In this document: in pieces, positions 871 to 9,717 of the stretch | Position numbering within the stretch: position 1 is the first letter of the stretch | Layout of the letters: each line of letters begins with the position of its first letter | From: an uncultured Myxococcales bacterium | Lineage (GTDB): Bacteria > Myxococcota_A > UBA9042 | Assembly: GCA_937910235.1 (NCBI GenBank) | Contig: CALENB010000576.1 | Location: forward strand, 1-46,796 | Direction: 5' to 3' | Length of the DNA stretch: 46,796 bases | Translations under genes and position numbers: made by a program | Notes under the pieces: model-generated | Database searches by the model: none | Told to the model about the DNA's origin: nothing | What the model saw: the letters and a program-made list of their open reading frames with translations, nothing else

Positions 871-951
871 GCCCCGTTGGTTGAGCCCCGTCGTGTGGCC
901 ACAGCGCTCGCTCACCCGCGCACCCGCGCGCTGAGGTGCTACGCTGCTCAC

Positions 952-3900
952 GTGAAACGCCCTCCCGCCGCCCACTTGCCTGCCCTCTTCGCCTGCGTCG
1001 CGCTGTGCGCGTGGGGCTGCGGTGACGCGGTATCGCCTGGGCCACGGGACGTCGACGCAGGCGCCAGCCGGGCGACCGACAGCCACGACGATGAGACGAC
1101 GCGCGGCATAGATGACGACGGCAGCGCAGCACTCGATGGGGCGGCAGCCGACGCCGTAAGGGTCACAGATGCCAACCCTGCGACGGAGGCGGACGCCGCG
1201 TTGGTCCCCGACACAGCAGACGACGCCGACACAGCAGACGACGACGCCACAGCGGACGACGACGCCACAGCAGACGCCGACGCCGCAGCAGACGCCGCCG
1301 CCACAGCGGACGACGCGGACACCGTGACGGACACGATCGCCAGTGACGCCGCGAAGGTCGACGTCGCGAAGGTCGACGCCACCCCAGACGGCACGACGGC
1401 GGACGGCGCGGCGCCCGACGCAGGCCTAAACCCAGGCTTCGACGCGGGCCAGGACAGCGCGGCCACGGTGGACACGAGCGACCCGTCGGTCTGTCCATTT
1501 GGCCAGTCTATCAAGGATCTGGGCTGCGGCTTTCAGGGCGTCTGCGCCGGTAAAATCAAGGTGAGCTGCTACGCTGACAAGCCTTCGTGCGACTACAGCG
1601 AGGCGTTGGATTGGCAGGTGGTCGAGACCGAGTGCGACGGCAAAGACAACGACTGCGACGGTCAGACGGACAACAACCTGTCGCGCCCGCTAGCCAAAAC
1701 GTGGCCTGCCAAAGGGGTCTGTCTCAAGGCGCAGCAGGTGTGCGGTGGGGCTGCTGGCTGGCAGGAGCCGATCGCGTGGCAGGTGGACGGCTACGAGGTC
1801 TCGGAGCTGACCTGCGACGGCCTCGACAACGACTGCGACGGCATCACCGACGACGACATCCAAGCCAAGCCGCCGCTGTCCAGCGGCGCGGGGGTGTGTG
1901 CTGGGCTGACCATGGTCTGCGTTGGCGGCATCTGGACGGCACCGACGGCCGCCACGGCGCCCGATTGGGAGGCGATCGAGGTGAGCTGTGACGGCCTCGA
2001 CAACGACTGCGACGGCAAGACGGATGAAGGCTTGATCGCGCCTGACACGTTGCCGGGCGGCGGCGCGCTGCTGAGCGCAGGGGTGTGCGCGGGGGCGAAG
2101 CCGGTCTGCTTGAATGGCACGTGGCAGGCGCCGGACTACCACGCCTTCGTGGCAGGCCTGCCGTCGCTGGTCACGCTGAGCTATGAGGCGATCGAGAAGA
2201 GCTGCGACGGCAAGGACAACGACTGTGACGGGCTCACGGACGAGGGCCTCGTCGGCCCCTTGGCGAAGCAGCAGCTCGGGGTCTGCGCGGGCAGCCGCAA
2301 AATCTGCAGTGGCGCCTGGATCGAGCCCAATTACGCTGCAATTGTGGGCTATCAGGCGGAAAAGGAGCTTGGCTGCGACGGGCTCGACAATGACTGCGAC
2401 GGGCTCACGGATGAGGACAGCGTCTGCCCGCTGTGGCAGGTCGGCGGGGTGAACGCGGGCGGCATGGCCGTCACGGGCGACGTGGTGGCGTGGGCGGCCG
2501 GCGCGGCGGTGGTGGTGCACAACAAGGCGACGGGCGCGCGGTTGGCGACCCACTTCGAACACGAGCAGCCGGTGCTGGGGATCGCGATCTCGCCGGACGG
2601 CAAGCTGCTGGCCACGGTGGGCGCCACGCAGGTGCTGCGAATTCGGCCGCTGACTGGGGGGGTGGTTGGCCTGGATCAGAGCGCAGCCGTCGACGCGCCG
2701 AGCAAGACGTGGACCGCGGTGCGCTTCGGTCCTGCGGGCAAACGCATCGCGGTGGCCGACAGCGTCGGTTGGCTGCGTGTGCTGACGTTGCCGGACGCCA
2801 AGGGCGGCTTGGCGAAAAAAGCGCACAACGGGCCGATTCGACGGCTGCTGTGGCTGCAAAACGGCACCTACGCCGGCGCGCGGCTGATCTCCGGCGACGA
2901 CAACGGCCAGCTCGTCGCCTCGAATCCGGACACGTTGGCGACGCAGAGCTGGAACCCGCCCTTCGCGCCGGCGACGACGTCGGGGCCGATTCGTGGGCTC
3001 GCGGCGGATGACAAGGGCGCGCTGATCGCGGTCGCGTGGGAGAAGGCCGGCGTGGCGGTGCTGCTGCCGGAGAAGGGCGTCGTGCAGGGCGGTCCGCTGC
3101 TCGTCGACAAGGGCGCCTCGGCGGTGGCGTTCGACGAGAAAGGGCGGCTGTGGATCGGCAACCTCGCTGGCGAGCTGCGGCGCTACATCCCCAGCGCGGC
3201 TGGCACGCCGAGCTGGGCTATCGACTGGAGTCTGGCGCCGAGCGCGACGGTGCCCAAGCCCGGCGCGGTGCTGGCCCTGGCGAGCGAGCCGACGGGTGGA
3301 CTGCTGCTGTCGGGCTCGCGGGCGACCGGGCGGCGTAGCGTGCAGGGTAGCTGGCAGCCGCTGGGATGGCCGCTGAAGGCCGCGCCGCGCGCGTTGGGCG
3401 CTGCGGGCGGGCGTTGGGCGGTCGGCGACGCTGACGGCCGTCTCAGCGTGCGCAGCTGGGCGGCGGGGGCGCCGCTCTGGAGCGGGGTGCTGCACGTGGG
3501 CAACCCGATCGACGCGGTGGCGCTGCGCCCGGCGGCAGCGCAGCTCAACGTGGCGACCGGGGGCGCGGACGCGACGACGCGCGTCGGCCACCTGGGCGCT
3601 GGAAACCCAGCGATCCTGAGCGCGCAGAGCGTCATCAGCGCGGCGAGCGGGACGCAGCGGCTCGCTTGGCATGGCGCGGTGCTCTATCGGGGCGTGGCTG
3701 CGACGGTTGTGGGTCTAGAGGCGAGCGCGACTGGCGCGGCCGGCGGCGGCGCAAAGATCGTCTTCAGCGCCGCCTTGGCGAGCGGCGACGTCGTCGATGA
3801 TCTCGCCGTGGCGCCGGCCGGGCAGCGGCTCGCCATCGCCGCGACGTCGGCTGGCGATCAGCTGCGAATCCTTGAGATCAGCACCGGAAAAAAATTGTGG

Positions 3901-4293
3901 GGCCGTGCGGGTCTGAGCTCAGCTCGCCGGTTGGTGGCGTGGCGCGGTGACGGCAGCGAGCTCCTGGTCAGCGGCGGCAACAGCGGCCTTCAGGTCATCT
4001 CGGCCGCGACCGGCAAGACGCTGATCGCCCTGCCGGGCCATCTCACCGCGGTGACGGCGCTGGCGTGGAGCGCGAACGGTCAGCGCATGCTGACGGCCTC
4101 CAGGGACGGCGCGTTGCGACTCTGGCGACGCACCGCGAGCGGCGCCGTGGGCCTCGCCACGTCGATTCGTCACTGCGGGTGGCCCTGCACCGCGGCGGGT
4201 GGGGTCGTCGGCGTGGCCTTTCGCACCGACACGGGCACGGAGTGGGTCAGCGTCGGCGCCGATGGCGGCGTGATTGGCTGGCGGCTGCCGTGA
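952..4293 (+). CDS. MopE-motif and beta-propeller lipoprotein
   Basis: The predicted protein is an exported lipoprotein of about 1113 residues. I chose the GTG at 952 because it gives a clean signal peptide (Lys-Arg, hydrophobic core, AWGC with Cys23); an in-frame TTG at 877 would add 25 unsuitable residues. Residues 24-185 form an Asp/Ala/Thr-rich low-complexity linker. Five CDGxDNDCDGxTD motifs follow, with first Cys near 228, 288, 346, 418 and 475. This motif is the putative metal-binding repeat named after the Methylococcus copper-binding protein MopE. The C-terminal half (about 495-1113) has spaced WD40-like strands, ending with a clear blade (AWSANGQRMLTASRDGALRLW). A surface or periplasmic scaffold is inferred; metal binding is untested. 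The composite of MopE motifs plus propeller looks typical of Myxococcota. It reads in the same direction as the HEAT protein 120 bases downstream. Confidence 0.8.
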   Translation: MKRPPAAHLPALFACVALCAWGCGDAVSPGPRDVDAGASRATDSHDDETTRGIDDDGSAALDGAAADAVRVTDANPATEADAALVPDTADDADTADDDATADDDATADADAAADAAATADDADTVTDTIASDAAKVDVAKVDATPDGTTADGAAPDAGLNPGFDAGQDSAATVDTSDPSVCPFGQSIKDLGCGFQGVCAGKIKVSCYADKPSCDYSEALDWQVVETECDGKDNDCDGQTDNNLSRPLAKTWPAKGVCLKAQQVCGGAAGWQEPIAWQVDGYEVSELTCDGLDNDCDGITDDDIQAKPPLSSGAGVCAGLTMVCVGGIWTAPTAATAPDWEAIEVSCDGLDNDCDGKTDEGLIAPDTLPGGGALLSAGVCAGAKPVCLNGTWQAPDYHAFVAGLPSLVTLSYEAIEKSCDGKDNDCDGLTDEGLVGPLAKQQLGVCAGSRKICSGAWIEPNYAAIVGYQAEKELGCDGLDNDCDGLTDEDSVCPLWQVGGVNAGGMAVTGDVVAWAAGAAVVVHNKATGARLATHFEHEQPVLGIAISPDGKLLATVGATQVLRIRPLTGGVVGLDQSAAVDAPSKTWTAVRFGPAGKRIAVADSVGWLRVLTLPDAKGGLAKKAHNGPIRRLLWLQNGTYAGARLISGDDNGQLVASNPDTLATQSWNPPFAPATTSGPIRGLAADDKGALIAVAWEKAGVAVLLPEKGVVQGGPLLVDKGASAVAFDEKGRLWIGNLAGELRRYIPSAAGTPSWAIDWSLAPSATVPKPGAVLALASEPTGGLLLSGSRATGRRSVQGSWQPLGWPLKAAPRALGAAGGRWAVGDADGRLSVRSWAAGAPLWSGVLHVGNPIDAVALRPAAAQLNVATGGADATTRVGHLGAGNPAILSAQSVISAASGTQRLAWHGAVLYRGVAATVVGLEASATGAAGGGAKIVFSAALASGDVVDDLAVAPAGQRLAIAATSAGDQLRILEISTGKKLWGRAGLSSARRLVAWRGDGSELLVSGGNSGLQVISAATGKTLIALPGHLTAVTALAWSANGQRMLTASRDGALRLWRRTASGAVGLATSIRHCGWPCTAAGGVVGVAFRTDTGTEWVSVGADGGVIGWRLP
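1204..1311 (+). repeat. 18-bp imperfect tandem repeat in lipoprotein linker
   Basis: Six degenerate copies of an 18-base unit of the type gacgccgacacagcagac lie in register with the reading frame of the surrounding lipoprotein. They encode hexapeptides such as DADTAD, DDATAD and ADAAAD. The array makes up the core of the linker between the lipidated Cys and the Cys-rich domain, so copy-number change would lengthen or shorten the linker without a frameshift. Confidence 0.8.
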
Positions 4294-4412
4294 CGAACGG
4301 GTACGAGCGCGAGCTGCCACGCTGAGGCATCGCGCTCCGCACCGCAACCGCGCATACTCCGGCCCTACCGCAACCACGGCCAGCTTGGCCTGCCACGCGC
4401 TTGGAGCCCACC

Positions 4413-5549
4413 ATGACCGAATTCGTCGCCGGCGCTCCGGTACCGCTCTCGTCCGTAACCGAAGCCCATCATCCGTTTGTGGATACGACCCGGCCGGCCG
4501 CCCTTCGTTTGAACGTGGCGAAGGGCTTGTTGCCGGCGAGGTTCGACGACCTCGTGCCGACCCTGGCGTTCCTGCTGCACGACCCCGAGGCGACGGTCCG
4601 CGCCGCCGCGGAGACCACGCTGTCGACGGCGCCGGACGACGAGGTCGACCGCGTTGTTCAGGCCGCCACGGACGTCGCGGTCCTCGACACGTTGGCCCGG
4701 CGCCTGCCGATCTGTGCTGCGACCCGCGCCGTCGCCCTCAATCGCCACAGCCGCGACGAGACGCTGGTGCATCTGGCTGGCTCGGGCGACCGCACGATCT
4801 GCGAAATCGTGGGCCGAAACGCCGAGCGCGCGCTGCAGAGCCCGGCCATGATCGAGGCGCTCTTTTTCAACCCGAAGGCCCCCCAAGGCGTCGTACAGAA
4901 CTTGCTCGAGTTGGCGGTGCGGCACGAGGTCCCACTCGACCACATGCCGGGTTTCCGGGAGATTCGCGCCGCGTTGCTCGGCGAACACGGCGCCGAAGAG
5001 GACGACGGGCTCATCCCGCTGGACGACATCGATTTTCTCAGCGCCGTCGACATGGCCCTCGACCACGACGCCGACTTGGTCGGTGGCGGCGAGGCCCACG
5101 AAGAGAAAGAGGAGATCAATCGCAGCCTGCAGGCCAGAATCGGCAGTATGAGCGTGGCGCAAAAGGTCCGCTTAGCCCTGGTCGGCGACGCGACCGCCCG
5201 CAAACTCCTCGTTCGTGACCCGAAGAAGATGGTGGCGTCCGCGGTGCTGAAGTCCCCGCGACTCACGGAGGGCGAGGTCAGGAATTTTGCGACCAACAAG
5301 AGCTTGGGCGATGAGATCATCAAGGAGATCGCACGTAACAAGAAGTGGACACGCGACTACGCGGTGCGCAAGGCGCTGATCATGAATCCAAAGACGCCGC
5401 TGTCGATCGCGATGACGCTGCTGCGCACGTTGTCGCTGCGAGACATCGGCGTCGTCAGCAAGAGCCGCGAGGTGACGGGTGCGGTGGCGCGTCTGGCCAA
5501 GAGTCACATCGAGAAGATCGAACAATCGAAGCGACGAAAGAAGAAGTAG
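4413..5549 (+). CDS. HEAT-like repeat protein of unknown function
   Basis: The product is 378 residues, without signal peptide or membrane segment, so probably cytoplasmic. The start is the ATG at 4413 preceded by GGAG six bases upstream. The sequence is all-alpha with repeated short helix pairs. One example is the stretch around LLHDPEATVRAAAETTLSTAP (HEAT-like, Asp-Pro then Val-Arg). Another is the recurring ARKLLVRDPKKMVASAVLKSP / YAVRKALIMNPKTPLSIAMTLL pattern in the C-terminal third. The middle (about 195-245) is Asp/Glu-rich, and the C-terminus is very basic (SKRRKKK). I do not recognise a named family beyond HEAT-like; a protein- or RNA-binding scaffold is a guess. The stop codon is the first of six consecutive TAG triplets. 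Confidence 0.7.
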   Translation: MTEFVAGAPVPLSSVTEAHHPFVDTTRPAALRLNVAKGLLPARFDDLVPTLAFLLHDPEATVRAAAETTLSTAPDDEVDRVVQAATDVAVLDTLARRLPICAATRAVALNRHSRDETLVHLAGSGDRTICEIVGRNAERALQSPAMIEALFFNPKAPQGVVQNLLELAVRHEVPLDHMPGFREIRAALLGEHGAEEDDGLIPLDDIDFLSAVDMALDHDADLVGGGEAHEEKEEINRSLQARIGSMSVAQKVRLALVGDATARKLLVRDPKKMVASAVLKSPRLTEGEVRNFATNKSLGDEIIKEIARNKKWTRDYAVRKALIMNPKTPLSIAMTLLRTLSLRDIGVVSKSREVTGAVARLAKSHIEKIEQSKRRKKK

Positions 5550-5564: not shown

Positions 5565-5597
5565 CAGCCGCGCCTGGGCGCGTGACTGCGGCTACAG
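5562..5597. terminator. GC-rich hairpin between converging genes
   Basis: The stretch contains CGCGC-CTGG-GCGCG (5569-5582) flanked by partly complementary GTAG...CCGC and GCGGCTAC arms. It falls in the 42-base gap between the HEAT-like gene and the leftward 5'-nucleotidase gene, so it could end transcripts from both sides. There is no T tract, and the outer arms pair only with a bulge, so this is tentative. Confidence 0.3.
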
Positions 5598-7337
5598 CGG
5601 CGTGTCAAACCTGCCAGCTGCGACGGCCTGCTGCACGACCTCGGCCAAGGTCGGCGACGACTTGCAGCGATCTTTGCCGAAATCTGTGTCGTCGCCGCAG
5701 AGCCGCTTGACCCGCGTCATGAGCCAGTGACCGCTGCCGCCGCGGGCTAGATAGTCATTGGTCGCGACCACGTAGGTCTTGGCAGGGACGACGGCGACGC
5801 CACCGATCAGCAGGTCTCGGACCCGATCGCCTGGCGCGCTGACGCCGACCACTTTGCCGTCGATTTTCTTGTACTGCAGCGGCTGTCGTTCGCCATCGCA
5901 CCGCATCTGGATCCCGTGCAGCGCCACCCGCTCGCCTAGCTTGCCGCGGTGCCCCTTGGTGCAGGCGTGCTCCAGCACCTGTGAGAGCTCGCGGCCCGTC
6001 AGCCGCAGCCGCACGAGTCGATTGCCGAAGGGATGAATGGCGCGGATGTCTTGGTCGGTCACAGGCCCCACGGGATACGTCGCGTTGGTGCGCAGGCCGC
6101 CCATGTTGAGGATGGCGCCGTCGACGTGGTGGCGTTGGCGCAGGTGCAGGGTCGCCGCGCGCGCGACGCGCTGGCCGTAGGGCTTGCGTCCGGCGCCGCT
6201 CAGGATCCATGGCTGGCTGCGCTCGCCGACGATCTGCTCGTTGGCGAAGGCGGCGCGGAGATCTTGGAGGGCGCTCGCGAGCGGCGGATCCCGCGGCAAC
6301 GCCGGATCGATGGCCCGCACGGCCCAGCTCGACTGACCCGCGATGACGCCGCCGCCCGGATGGGCCACGATGTCGAGATAGCCAAGATGACCAAAGCGGG
6401 ACCCCGTCTGCACCACCAGCGTCTCGCTGACTCGCTTCCACGCCTTGAGCAGCGTGTGGCTATGCCCGCCGACGATGACGTCGATGCCCCGGACCTCAGT
6501 CGCCAGCCGCCGATCGTGGGGGTAGCCCAGGTGCGTGAGCGCCACAATCACGTCCACCCGCTGTTTGCGCAGCGCCGCGATCGCCCGCCTCGCGGGGGCG
6601 TTCACCGGATCGCTGGGGTCGGACATGCGGGTGTCGCCGAAATCCGAGATGGTCTGGGTCGATGGCGTGAGCAGGCCGAAAAAGCCGATGCGCAGGCCGC
6701 CGCAGCGCCGCACCAGCGTGGTCGCGTAGAGCTTGCCATCGAGGTTGTGCAGCGCCGGGCTCGTCGGATCGAGGTTCGAGGTGACGATGCGAAACGTCGT
6801 GAGCGCCGCCATGGCGTAGCGCAGCACCGCGGGGCCGGCGTCAAACTCATGATTGCCCAGGACACCCACGTCGTAGCCCGCAGCTTCGTACAGCAGCCAC
6901 GCCTCCCGCGCCGCCCGCTTGCGATCGCCGTCTTTTCGCACCATGTAGCGGCCTTGCAGCACATCCCCGGCGCTCACGAGCAGCACGGCGCCCTTGCGCT
7001 CCCGCAAGAGCCGCTTCTTCTCAGCGGCGATGCGAGTGATCGTGCCGACATAGGTGAGGTTCGGCGCGTGGCCTTGCTTGCGGCCGTCAAAATGGGCTTC
7101 GCTGTCGTTGGTGGTCAGCAGCAGGCACCGTCGCTTCAGATCGTGCGGCCCAGGCTTGAACGACGGCGTAGTCGACCGCGCTGACGACGCGGCGGGCGAC
7201 GAGGCTGCCGACGAGGCGTCGGGCTGCGCGCCACCACAGCCGCTCGCTAGCAACCCCAACAGCAGCCACAGCGCGCGAACACGGCGCTGAGTGACCTCCA
7301 GCGACCACCGCGGCGTCTGAATCCTGGCTGTGATCAT
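5592..7337 (-). CDS. 5'-nucleotidase/UshA-family metallophosphoesterase lipoprotein
   Basis: The 581-residue product starts with a lipoprotein signal (LLGLLASGC, Cys34) and a Ser/Ala linker, so it should be periplasm- or surface-anchored. The N-terminal calcineurin-like phosphoesterase domain shows SAGDVLQG, LGNHEFDAG, ALTHLG and GGHSHT. The C-terminal substrate domain has ILNMGGLRTNATY and HPFGNRLVRLRLTG, as in UshA and other 5'-nucleotidases that hydrolyse nucleotides or related phosphoesters. The first metal motif is unusual: TTNDSEAHF has Glu where D-x-H is normal, with a His two residues later. The ATG lies 6 bases after the class II aldolase stop, so it is probably the last gene of that operon. 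The substrate cannot be told from sequence. Confidence 0.85.
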   Translation of the reverse strand: MITARIQTPRWSLEVTQRRVRALWLLLGLLASGCGGAQPDASSAASSPAASSARSTTPSFKPGPHDLKRRCLLLTTNDSEAHFDGRKQGHAPNLTYVGTITRIAAEKKRLLRERKGAVLLVSAGDVLQGRYMVRKDGDRKRAAREAWLLYEAAGYDVGVLGNHEFDAGPAVLRYAMAALTTFRIVTSNLDPTSPALHNLDGKLYATTLVRRCGGLRIGFFGLLTPSTQTISDFGDTRMSDPSDPVNAPARRAIAALRKQRVDVIVALTHLGYPHDRRLATEVRGIDVIVGGHSHTLLKAWKRVSETLVVQTGSRFGHLGYLDIVAHPGGGVIAGQSSWAVRAIDPALPRDPPLASALQDLRAAFANEQIVGERSQPWILSGAGRKPYGQRVARAATLHLRQRHHVDGAILNMGGLRTNATYPVGPVTDQDIRAIHPFGNRLVRLRLTGRELSQVLEHACTKGHRGKLGERVALHGIQMRCDGERQPLQYKKIDGKVVGVSAPGDRVRDLLIGGVAVVPAKTYVVATNDYLARGGSGHWLMTRVKRLCGDDTDFGKDRCKSSPTLAEVVQQAVAAGRFDTPL

Positions 7338-7343
7338 GACGAC

Positions 7344-8066
7344 CTAGTGCCCGCGGCGGGCGCGACCCTGCACACCGAGCCCGGCCGCGGCGCGGCTCTC
7401 AAGCAGTCTGGCGACGTCGGCGTCTGGCAGGGTGCGCACCGGGCCGATTTTCAGGGCTTGTAGCTGGATGCGAGCGAGGTGTTCGACCAGCTCGAGCCGC
7501 AGGAACGCTTGCTCGAGGTCGTCGCCCCAGGCCAGCGCCCCGTGTTGCTCGATCGTCACCGCGTCGTGCACAGCGGCGATCTCGCGCAGCGCGGCGATCT
7601 GATCTGCGCTGTTCGGAAAACCGTAGGGCACCATCGGCACCCGACTGCCGAGCGACACGATGGGCTCCGCCATCATCCGCGGCTCCACCTCGATGCCCAT
7701 GATCGCGAGCGCCGTGGCGCAGGGCGGATGCGCATGCACGACGGCTTTGGCGTCAGGCCGCGTGTCGTAGACAGCGACGTGCATCTTGAACTCGGAGAAG
7801 GGTCGGCGCCCCCCGCGCAGCACACGACCGCTGCGGTCGACGACGATGGGGTCTGTCTCATCCAACACGCGTTTGCTCAACGCCGTCGGCGTGATGAGAA
7901 AACGCCCGGCCGGTAGCCGAATCGAGACGTTGCCGTCGTGGTTGGCGACCCAGGCCGCGCTGTGCAGGCTGTGCGCGATGTCGATCAGCGCCCGACGCAG
8001 CACCGGAAAGCTCGCGTCGCGGCCGTGCATTTGGTGAATGGCGCCATGTTTGGCCGCTCCGCTCAC
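7344..8066 (-). CDS. Class II aldolase (fuculose-phosphate aldolase type), microcompartment-associated
   Basis: The 240-residue product matches class II aldolase/adducin proteins such as L-fuculose-1-phosphate aldolase. These zinc enzymes cleave sugar phosphates to dihydroxyacetone phosphate and an aldehyde. The expected zinc/catalytic residues are present: Glu92 in FSEFKMH, His111 and His113 in HAHPP, and His175 in EQHGALAWG; N-terminal NHDGNVSIRL is the phosphate-binding region. The start is taken as GTG at 8066, 1 base after the upstream BMC-P gene, although an internal ATG at 8030 is possible. Class II aldolases (PvmN) work inside planctomycete/verrucomicrobial microcompartments that degrade fucose and rhamnose, so the two adjacent BMC-P genes make a similar role likely here (inference). 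The short basic C-tail (QGRARRGH) is not an obvious encapsulation peptide. Confidence 0.85.
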   Translation of the reverse strand: MSGAAKHGAIHQMHGRDASFPVLRRALIDIAHSLHSAAWVANHDGNVSIRLPAGRFLITPTALSKRVLDETDPIVVDRSGRVLRGGRRPFSEFKMHVAVYDTRPDAKAVVHAHPPCATALAIMGIEVEPRMMAEPIVSLGSRVPMVPYGFPNSADQIAALREIAAVHDAVTIEQHGALAWGDDLEQAFLRLELVEHLARIQLQALKIGPVRTLPDADVARLLESRAAAGLGVQGRARRGH

Positions 8067-8067
8067 G

Positions 8068-8382
8068 TCACGCTCCCGGCTTCGCGGCTACCGCGGCTTG
8101 GCTGGGGGTGTCGTGGCTGACGTGCACCGCGTCGACCACACCAACGATCAGGCAGCGAATCGGCGACTTTGGCTGGCCAAGCACCTGGCGGATGCCGCTG
8201 CCTTCGCGCAGCACCAAGACCTGATCGCCAGGGCCGGCCTGGGCGTGATCCACCGCCAAGAACGTGGCGCCCGCGGCGGTGCCGTCGGCGTCGATGGGCT
8301 CCACAACAAACACCGAGCGAGCGAAGAGCTCCTCGTGTTTGATGGTCGAGACGACGGGTTCGAGTACGCGTCCGAGGATCAT
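8068..8382 (-). CDS. BMC-P shell vertex protein (EutN/CcmL family), second copy
   Basis: The 104-residue product begins MILGRVLEPVVSTIKHEEL, the EutN/CcmL N-terminus. It continues with VFVVEPIDADG, the conserved VDHAQAGPGDQVLVLREGSGIR stretch (Gly-Pro-Gly-Asp then RxGSxxR) and a final CLIVGVVDAVHV strand. Proteins of this family form pentamers that cap the vertices of bacterial microcompartment shells. The ATG overlaps the stop of the preceding BMC-P gene as ATGA, implying coupled translation. A longer frame to 8421 exists but would read back into that gene. The C-terminal tail (SHDTPSQAAVAAKPGA) is longer than a minimal pentamer fold. Confidence 0.9.
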   Translation of the reverse strand: MILGRVLEPVVSTIKHEELFARSVFVVEPIDADGTAAGATFLAVDHAQAGPGDQVLVLREGSGIRQVLGQPKSPIRCLIVGVVDAVHVSHDTPSQAAVAAKPGA

Positions 8383-8705
8383 GACACACCGCCCCGAGCC
8401 GCAGGATCGCCGGCTGGCCACGACGACGCGAGAGGCGGTAGCCCATCCCCGACGGCATCCACGATGGCGATGATGGCGTGGTCGACCGGCACGAAGGGCT
8501 CTGGCAGCGACACAGCGGCTTCGCGCGACGAGGTGAGGTGCACGACATCACCAGGGCCCGCCTGGGTCGTGTCTGCCGCGACGACGGCGCCGCCCAGATC
8601 GACACCTGCTTCGGTGATGGGCTGCACCAACATCATGCGCACGCCATCGAGTCCGGGGACTTTCTGGGTGGCGACCACTGTGCCGATTACGCGTCCGAGA
8701 AACAT
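8379..8705 (-). CDS. BMC-P shell vertex protein (EutN/CcmL family), first copy
   Basis: The 108-residue product starts MFLGRVIGTVVATQKVPGL and has MMLVQPITEAG, AADTTQAGPGDVVHLTSSRE and HAIIAIVDAV, all diagnostic for the EutN/CcmL pentamer family. The first Met of the conserved fold (8705) is chosen over an upstream in-frame start at 8750 that would add an unrelated basic stretch. It differs clearly from its neighbour (Ser-Arg-Glu-Ala for Arg-Glu-Gly-Ser in the loop), so the pair is an old duplication or two specialised vertex proteins. No hexameric (BMC-H) or trimeric (BMC-T) shell gene is in the window. The TPR lipoprotein gene lies 58 bases upstream in the same direction. Confidence 0.9.
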   Translation of the reverse strand: MFLGRVIGTVVATQKVPGLDGVRMMLVQPITEAGVDLGGAVVAADTTQAGPGDVVHLTSSREAAVSLPEPFVPVDHAIIAIVDAVGDGLPPLASSWPAGDPAARGGVS

Positions 8706-8763: not shown

Positions 8764-9717
8764 TCACAGCCGTTTGAGTCGAATCAACATCCGCGCGGCC
8801 ATGTTGAGATCGGCCTTGTTGGCGCGATTCTGACCGATCAGCAGGTACTTTCGGATCTCCGCGGTCGCCTCTTCGCGGTCGCCGGTCTGCAGCAGCGCGG
8901 CGGCATAGTTCAGGTGCACCGTGTAGTCCGCGCGCGGGCTCTGCACCGCGATCTTGAAGACGCCGCGCGCCACCGAGGGTTCGCCCATGTCCAGCCAGGC
9001 CATGCCCAAGGCTTCCATGAGGTTGACGTCCTCCGGCGAGAATCGCAGGCCCTCGTTGAGCACCTTCATCGCGGGCTCGTAGGCGCCCACGTCGGTGTAC
9101 ATGCGGCTGAGCAGCAGGTACGCCGGAGAGAACCCGGCGTCGCCCGCGATCGCGGCGCGCAGGGCGCGGTCGGCGCCGTCTTTGTCCTTGCGCTTGAGGG
9201 CAATACGCGCCTCGAGGAAGTGCCCGTTCGGGTGACCCGCGTCCAGCTTGAACAGCTCATTGAGCGCGTGGAGCGAATCGCCAAAGGCGCCGAGCTCAAA
9301 ATGCGCGCGGGCGATATGCAGCCACGCTTCGGCGTGCCTCGGGTCGGTCTGCGTCGCGACCTTCAAATGCTCGAGGGCCTCGCGGGGTTCTTCCGCCTTC
9401 AGCTTGAGAAAACCGAGGTAGAAGTGCGCGTCGTGGTTTTGGGGATCGATCTCGAGCGCGTGCTTGAGGTGCCCCGCGGCCTGCAGGCTGTTGCCCTGGT
9501 TCAGCTCGCGCACGGCGCGGTTGATGTGACCGACTGTGCGCTTGGCCCGGTCATCACAGCCGCCGAGGCTGGCCACCATGAGCAGCGACACGAGCAGCGC
9601 CCCGGCGCACCGACGTCTACCAGCGAGCGCACCGCGCGACGACTGGGTCCCGAATGGCGCCACGCCAACGGGCGACAGGCGACAGAAGTCGATCTCTTCG
9701 GTGATTTGCGCGCGCAT
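8764..9717 (-). CDS. TPR-repeat lipoprotein, AglT/GltE-like by context
   Basis: The 317-residue product has a late signal peptide (LLVSLLMVASLGGC, lipobox Cys54) followed by tandem tetratricopeptide repeats over about residues 60-300. Examples are QAAGHLKHALEIDPQNHDAHFYLG, split by family pattern into helix pairs, and REALEHLKVATQTDPRHAEA. TPR proteins are protein-interaction scaffolds. The lipobox places it at the outer membrane or periplasmic face. The long N-terminal region before the hydrophobic core suggests a start later than 9717, for example GTG at 9663, but neither site has a clear ribosome-binding site. The gene is 6 bases after the AgmX/PglI-like gene. In Myxococcus a TPR lipoprotein (AglT/GltE) is encoded beside PglI/GltG, so a similar envelope complex is inferred. 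Confidence 0.75.
   Translation of the reverse strand: MRAQITEEIDFCRLSPVGVAPFGTQSSRGALAGRRRCAGALLVSLLMVASLGGCDDRAKRTVGHINRAVRELNQGNSLQAAGHLKHALEIDPQNHDAHFYLGFLKLKAEEPREALEHLKVATQTDPRHAEAWLHIARAHFELGAFGDSLHALNELFKLDAGHPNGHFLEARIALKRKDKDGADRALRAAIAGDAGFSPAYLLLSRMYTDVGAYEPAMKVLNEGLRFSPEDVNLMEALGMAWLDMGEPSVARGVFKIAVQSPRADYTVHLNYAAALLQTGDREEATAEIRKYLLIGQNRANKADLNMAARMLIRLKRL

What the first reader, a model, noticed from the sequence alone, without database searches (positions are those of the whole stretch)
7344..8705. Two BMC-P vertex genes coupled to a class II aldolase but no hexamer gene
Two distinct EutN/CcmL pentamer genes overlap as ATGA and are followed after 1 base by a class II aldolase with an intact zinc site. 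Fucose/rhamnose (PVM-type) microcompartments use a class II aldolase as signature enzyme. Myxococcota such as Haliangium split shell genes between loci. The window therefore probably shows a satellite microcompartment locus whose BMC-H/BMC-T genes lie elsewhere, or a shell-less use of pentamers.
Basis: partly seen in the sequence, partly recalled or inferred. Interest (0 to 1): 0.65.

Follow-up and report, generated by a model that had tools for sequence, protein, structure and literature searches.

The report
Satellite genes of a known microcompartment
The two vertex-protein genes and the aldolase gene are the detached part of a bacterial protein-shelled organelle whose hexamer, trimer and aldehyde dehydrogenase genes lie elsewhere in the same genome, an arrangement already published as the 'type I HO' microcompartment of Haliangium and its relatives.

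Summary
In detail: two EutN/CcmL (BMC-P) genes overlap as ATGA, and a class II aldolase starts 1 base later. The genome is not hexamer-less. Contig C323 carries BMC-Tdp, BMC-H, a third BMC-P, acylating AldDH and a second BMC-T in a row; C24 carries EutB-EutC-EutL. BMC-H, BMC-Tdp and the third BMC-P match Haliangium ochraceum shell proteins. Sutter et al. [quoted passage not shown] In a 379-genome phylum survey all 119 genomes with a close aldolase homologue have BMC-P; in the window's family 22 of 22 have the trio.

The PVM reading is not supported by what could be tested. The aldolase has the FucA fold and metal ligands but a clade-specific Ser71Phe/Gly44Ala change. I found no encapsulation-peptide-like tail on it or on its relatives in this family, although relatives in many other families have one. 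Instead DeoC, AldDH and an orphan class II aldolase carry such tails. A 5'-nucleotidase lipoprotein follows the trio in 17 of 19 checkable genomes, fitting the published guess of nucleic-acid sugar catabolism. New member of a known kind, with some new details.

The parts
8379..8705 (-). BMC-P1, EutN/CcmL vertex pentamer gene (108 aa), first of the satellite pair
   Evidence: PF03319 85.5 bits; PDB hits to the HO shell pentamer 5v74 and others; orthologous to P1 of type II main loci
8068..8382 (-). BMC-P2, second vertex pentamer gene (104 aa), ATGA overlap with P1
   Evidence: PF03319 77.1 bits; P2 forms its own clade, support 98
7344..8066 (-). class II aldolase of the BMC-P-linked subfamily (240 aa, GTG start), without an EP-like tail
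   Evidence: PF00596 147.3 bits; AlphaFold2 model pLDDT 92.4, best PDB matches FucA and DrdA; tail comparison
5592..7337 (-). 5'-nucleotidase (UshA-like) with a lipoprotein-type signal (LLASGC), 6 bases downstream of the aldolase; probably the same transcription unit
   Evidence: PF02872 and PF00149; same strand and next gene in 17 of 19 family genomes with enough sequence
8764..9717 (-). TPR-repeat protein upstream of BMC-P1 (58-base gap); conserved neighbour in the genus and part of the family, link to the organelle unproven
   Evidence: TPR families; neighbour comparison

Best explanation
This is the satellite locus of a type I HO (Haliangium ochraceum-type) bacterial microcompartment. Shown by sequence: the main locus (BMC-Tdp, BMC-H, BMC-P3, AldDH, BMC-T) is on contig C323, and P1, P2 and the aldolase are the missing right-hand end of that array, which type II relatives carry contiguously. 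Inferred: P1, P2 and P3 supply the vertices of one shell built from BMC-H and BMC-T; inside it an acylating AldDH oxidises an aldehyde, most likely acetaldehyde, to acyl-CoA; an AckA-PduL fusion then gives acyl phosphate and ATP. Inferred aldehyde sources are deoxyribose 5-phosphate (DeoC with an N-terminal EP-like helix), ethanolamine (EutBC with EutL), and the substrates of one or two class II aldolases. The satellite aldolase is probably an aldehyde-generating aldolase on an altered substrate. Because it lacks an EP-like tail in this family, it either enters by another route or works outside or at the shell.
For: PF00936 hits: four on C323 and two on C24; PF03319: one on C323 and two in the window. 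Gene order on C323 and C24. BMC-H best natural match is HO-5815, BMC-Tdp is HO-5816 (315 bits), P3 is the 5v74 pentamer; the C24 shell protein is EutL. Type II relatives hold all eight genes in one array (L106: Tdp, H, P3, AldDH, T, P1, P2, aldolase) and type I relatives split them the same way; in the single-contig genome G086 the two parts are about 31 kb apart. P1, P2 and P3 form three separate clades shared by both layouts. All 119 genomes with aldolase E<=1e-45 have BMC-P, and 154 of the 155 BMC-P genomes also have PF00936. EP-like ends on AldDH, DeoC and the orphan aldolase are conserved across the family. AckA-PduL fusion, DeoC and acetylating-AldDH-like models reach their cut-offs. Published description: PMC8217296.
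Against: The genome is a 593-contig draft, so the distance between satellite and main locus is unknown. No experiment or proteomics is available. The satellite aldolase lacks an EP-like tail, so its presence inside the shell is not supported by targeting evidence. Its substrate is unknown.
Confidence: 0.93

Rival explanations
1. A PVM-type fucose/rhamnose microcompartment, with the aldolase as PvmN equivalent cleaving L-fuculose or L-rhamnulose 1-phosphate to lactaldehyde.
For: A class II aldolase is linked to BMC-P genes, as in PVM and GRM5 (PMC4207490). Fold and metal ligands match FucA.
Against: The gene set and order are those of the HO type, with EutBC/EutL and an EP-tailed DeoC. FucA Ser71 is Phe in all 21 family members and 35 of 39 others of the BMC-P-linked clade, and Gly44 is Ala; orphan aldolases keep Ser or Thr at position 71. 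No FucA or rhamnulose aldolase model reaches its cut-off: fucA 82 of 400 bits, rhamnulose-1-phosphate aldolase 44 of 170.
Confidence: 0.05
2. A shell-less use of the pentamers: P1 and P2 act without any hexamer, for example as aldolase partners.
For: The window itself has no BMC-H or BMC-T gene. The function of extra BMC-P paralogues is an open question in the literature (PMC8217296).
Against: The genome has BMC-H and three BMC-T genes. Across the phylum 154 of 155 BMC-P genomes also have PF00936.
Confidence: 0.02
3. The BMC-P-linked aldolase is not cargo but a structural or assembly partner of the vertex proteins, and its catalytic activity is secondary or lost in some lineages.
For: It is locked genetically to P1-P2 rather than to AldDH. 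No EP-like tail in this family, while an orphan paralogue keeps one. In ten sampled relatives (families f30, f34, f36) the metal ligand His155 is Asn.
Against: In the window and most relatives all four metal-site residues are intact. Many other families have a C-terminal EP-like tail on the same protein, as cargo would.
Confidence: 0.12

Closest known systems
Type I HO bacterial microcompartment, satellite locus (Sutter et al. 2021, PMC8217296)
   Same: Two BMC-P genes with an aldolase, away from a main locus with BMC-H, BMC-T, a third BMC-P and AldDH; EUT-module satellite; EP-like N-terminus on an unlinked DeoC.
   Different: Here a 5'-nucleotidase lipoprotein gene follows in the same direction, and the aldolase has no EP-like tail; neither is mentioned in the main text of that paper. 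The EUT module here shows EutB, EutC and EutL on C24; EutA was not searched for.
Type II HO microcompartment
   Same: The same eight orthologous genes.
   Different: One contiguous array, e.g. L106 (G280) and L098 (G195).
PVM / PVM-like microcompartments (PvmN class II aldolase)
   Same: PF00596 aldolase linked to BMC-P genes and AldDH.
   Different: Different gene set; substrate-site residues changed against FucA; PvmN itself not compared.
E. coli FucA (1fua) and B. thuringiensis DrdA (6btg)
   Same: Fold (TM-score about 0.79 by query length) and metal ligands.
   Different: 27-31% identity; Ser71Phe and Gly44Ala; Tyr113 and Tyr209 absent; about 17 extra N-terminal residues.

Membership tests
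Type I HO microcompartment | Main locus with BMC-H, BMC-Tdp, BMC-P, AldDH and BMC-T | tested here: met
   Contig C323, order Tdp, H, P3, AldDH, T; PDB matches to HO shell proteins
Type I HO microcompartment | BMC-P triplet | tested here: met
   Three PF03319 genes, one in each of three clades
Type I HO microcompartment | Satellite with two BMC-P and an aldolase, separate from the main locus | tested here: met
   Window 7344-8705; no other shell gene on this 46.8-kb contig. Distance to C323 unknown (draft assembly)
Type I HO microcompartment | Assembly of one shell from all these proteins in the cell | not testable with these tools
   Needs microscopy or proteomics
PVM microcompartment | Aldolase specific for fuculose/rhamnulose 1-phosphate, of the PvmN clade | tested here: inconclusive
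   Ser71Phe and Gly44Ala argue against a FucA-like site; PvmN could not be fetched and no assay is possible
PVM microcompartment | PVM gene set: DeoR regulator and lactate/malate-type dehydrogenase with the shell genes | tested here: not met
   The neighbours read on C323, C24 and around the trio are of other families; genes elsewhere in the genome were not searched
Class II aldolase (PF00596) | Fold and metal-binding Glu/His/His/His | tested here: met
EP-targeted cargo (satellite aldolase) | Terminal amphipathic helix joined by a flexible linker | tested here: not met
   No C-terminal extension in the family; N-terminal residues 1-10 low confidence, one 4-residue helix only
Shell-less pentamer system | No BMC-H/BMC-T in the genome | tested here: not met
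   Six PF00936 matches

The most novel reading that the evidence does not exclude
The BMC-P-linked aldolase is a distinct subfamily that no longer uses a FucA-type sugar 1-phosphate, and in the window's family it is held at the vertices by its two co-translated pentamers instead of by an encapsulation peptide, while DeoC and an orphan EP-tailed class II aldolase do the lumenal work. That would give the extra BMC-P paralogues a cargo or vertex role.
Probability: 0.12. Interest if true: 0.6.

Novelty: new member of a known kind. Interest (0 to 1): 0.33.

Why it matters
The HO shell is the main structural model of microcompartments, but its natural substrate is unknown and three BMC-P paralogues are more than a polyhedron needs (PMC8217296). 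This genome gives a full candidate parts list, and the family-wide pattern adds three testable hints: a co-directional 5'-nucleotidase, an EP-tailed orphan class II aldolase, and a satellite aldolase with a changed substrate site and no EP-like tail. These bear on function rather than reveal a new system.

Tried and rejected
Shell-less pentamers: rejected on the genome search. PVM membership: not supported. Chance or frameshifted ORFs: rejected, since all three genes are conserved in 22 of 22 family genomes. A search of plasmids for similar BMC-P found only Ilyobacter and Listeria, of no use for PvmN. The single genome-contig scan returned Myxococcota or unclassified MAG records and one record titled Klebsiella pneumoniae, no Planctomycetota, so no PvmN tree could be made. 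Hydrophobic-moment tests of the EP-like helices are weak one by one (shuffle fractions 0.07-0.58), so the EP claim rests on position, linker and conservation. Promoter and terminator scans were at chance level.

Full report
Observation. On the minus strand the window holds BMC-P1 (8379-8705), BMC-P2 (8068-8382, ATGA overlap) and a class II aldolase (7344-8066, GTG start, 1 base after P2). All three score well above the Pfam cut-offs. A GTG start 45 bases upstream of P1 is also open, but the ATG at 8705 begins the PF03319 domain.

The rest of the genome. The genome G000 (7.1 Mb, 593 contigs) has six PF00936 matches, four on C323 and two on C24, and three PF03319 matches, one on C323 and two here. 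C323 (5.5 kb) reads BMC-Tdp, BMC-H, BMC-P3, AldDH, BMC-T. C24 reads EutB, EutC and EutL. The BMC-H matches HO-5815 as its best natural PDB chain, the BMC-Tdp matches HO-5816 and P3 matches the 5v74 pentamer. The locus is therefore not hexamer-less; the shell genes are split between contigs. The genus relative G088 has the same main locus (L130, AldDH 953 bits), which argues against C323 being a contaminant.

Comparison across the phylum. In 379 genomes, 155 have BMC-P, 157 have PF00936 and 154 have both. All 119 genomes with an aldolase match at E<=1e-45 have BMC-P (Fisher p about 2e-66, not corrected for relatedness). The P1-P2-aldolase trio is present in all 22 genomes of the window's family. 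In other families the same genes are either split in the same way or contiguous with the main locus: L106 reads Tdp, H, P3, AldDH, T, P1, P2, aldolase. In the single-contig genome G086 the main and satellite parts lie about 31 kb apart. P1, P2 and P3 are three clades that hold across both layouts (supports 92, 98 and 97). This is the type I / type II HO distinction of Sutter et al. [quoted passage not shown]).

The aldolase. It has the FucA fold (AlphaFold2 mean pLDDT 92.4; best PDB matches FucA and DrdA) and the metal-site Glu and three His. In a tree of 93 class II aldolases the BMC-P-linked ones fall together (60 rows, support 84), apart from orphan class II aldolases of the same phylum. 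Four of those 60 rows had no BMC-P on the stretch fetched, but their genomes have BMC-P. Compared with FucA the clade has Ser71 to Phe (21 of 21 in the family, 35 of 39 elsewhere) and Gly44 to Ala, while orphans keep Ser or Thr at 71. From my own knowledge of FucA, Asn29, Thr43, Gly44, Ser71 and Ser72 surround the substrate phosphate; the FucA mutants in the PDB (S71Q, N29L/S71A) fit that. I infer an altered substrate, not a proven one. In ten relatives (f30, f34, f36) His155 is Asn.

Targeting. AldDH (N-terminus MDDARIEAIVSEVVRRLG), the unlinked DeoC (N-terminus QFETLV..ARVR.EL) and an orphan class II aldolase on C54 (C-terminus DSERLITAVLAALT) carry EP-like ends. The DeoC end is readable in 18 of 19 listed DeoC proteins of this kind from the family, and the orphan aldolase end in all 20 family sequences. 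The satellite aldolase has a P/A-rich linker and terminal helix in many other families but none in the window's family; parsimony counts about ten changes of this trait over the tree. The single-sequence amphipathicity test is weak. So EP-like is a reading of position and conservation, and the absence in this family is a sequence fact whose meaning is open.

Neighbours. A 5'-nucleotidase with a lipoprotein-type signal begins 6 bases after the aldolase stop and is the next co-directional gene in 17 of 19 family genomes with enough sequence; it was not seen beside the trio in the other families read. Together with DeoC it fits, but does not prove, the nucleic-acid catabolism proposed for HO organelles in PMC8217296.

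Mechanism. Shown: gene content, order, orthology and co-occurrence. Inferred: one shell with three vertex proteins; aldehyde production by DeoC, EutBC and class II aldolase(s); oxidation by AldDH (NF011927, 609 of 403 bits); acyl phosphate and ATP from an AckA-PduL fusion on C503. The satellite aldolase's substrate and location are the weakest steps.

Verdict. A correct observation of a known kind of locus.

Noticed in passing
G000:C54:7433-8119 (L083, L146): Orphan class II aldolase with a CPP(L)E linker and a C-terminal EP-like helix, conserved in 20 of 22 family genomes; candidate second aldolase cargo of the HO organelle.
   Followed up: partly
G000:C392:10896-11846 (L129:6897-7847): Deoxyribose-phosphate aldolase (TIGR00126, 264.9 bits, cut-off 117.3) with an N-terminal EP-like helix and a CxxGKGECTGCGW cysteine motif in the linker, conserved in most of the family.
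   Followed up: partly
G000:C503, L128 about 3301-5055: Acetate kinase fused to a PduL-type phosphotransacylase in one reading frame.
   Followed up: partly
L070, L087, L093, L101, L102, L111, L113-L116: BMC-P-linked aldolases of families f30, f34 and f36 have Asn in place of the metal ligand His155.
   Followed up: partly
window 877-4293: Large protein with repeated CDGxDNDCDGxTDE motifs followed by WD-like repeats; not part of the microcompartment, conserved in the genus (L072, L073).
   Followed up: no
L074 (CAMDBH010000026.1): A record titled Klebsiella pneumoniae MAG holds this myxococcal trio; it gives the same ORF scores as G101 and is probably a mislabelled bin.
   Followed up: no
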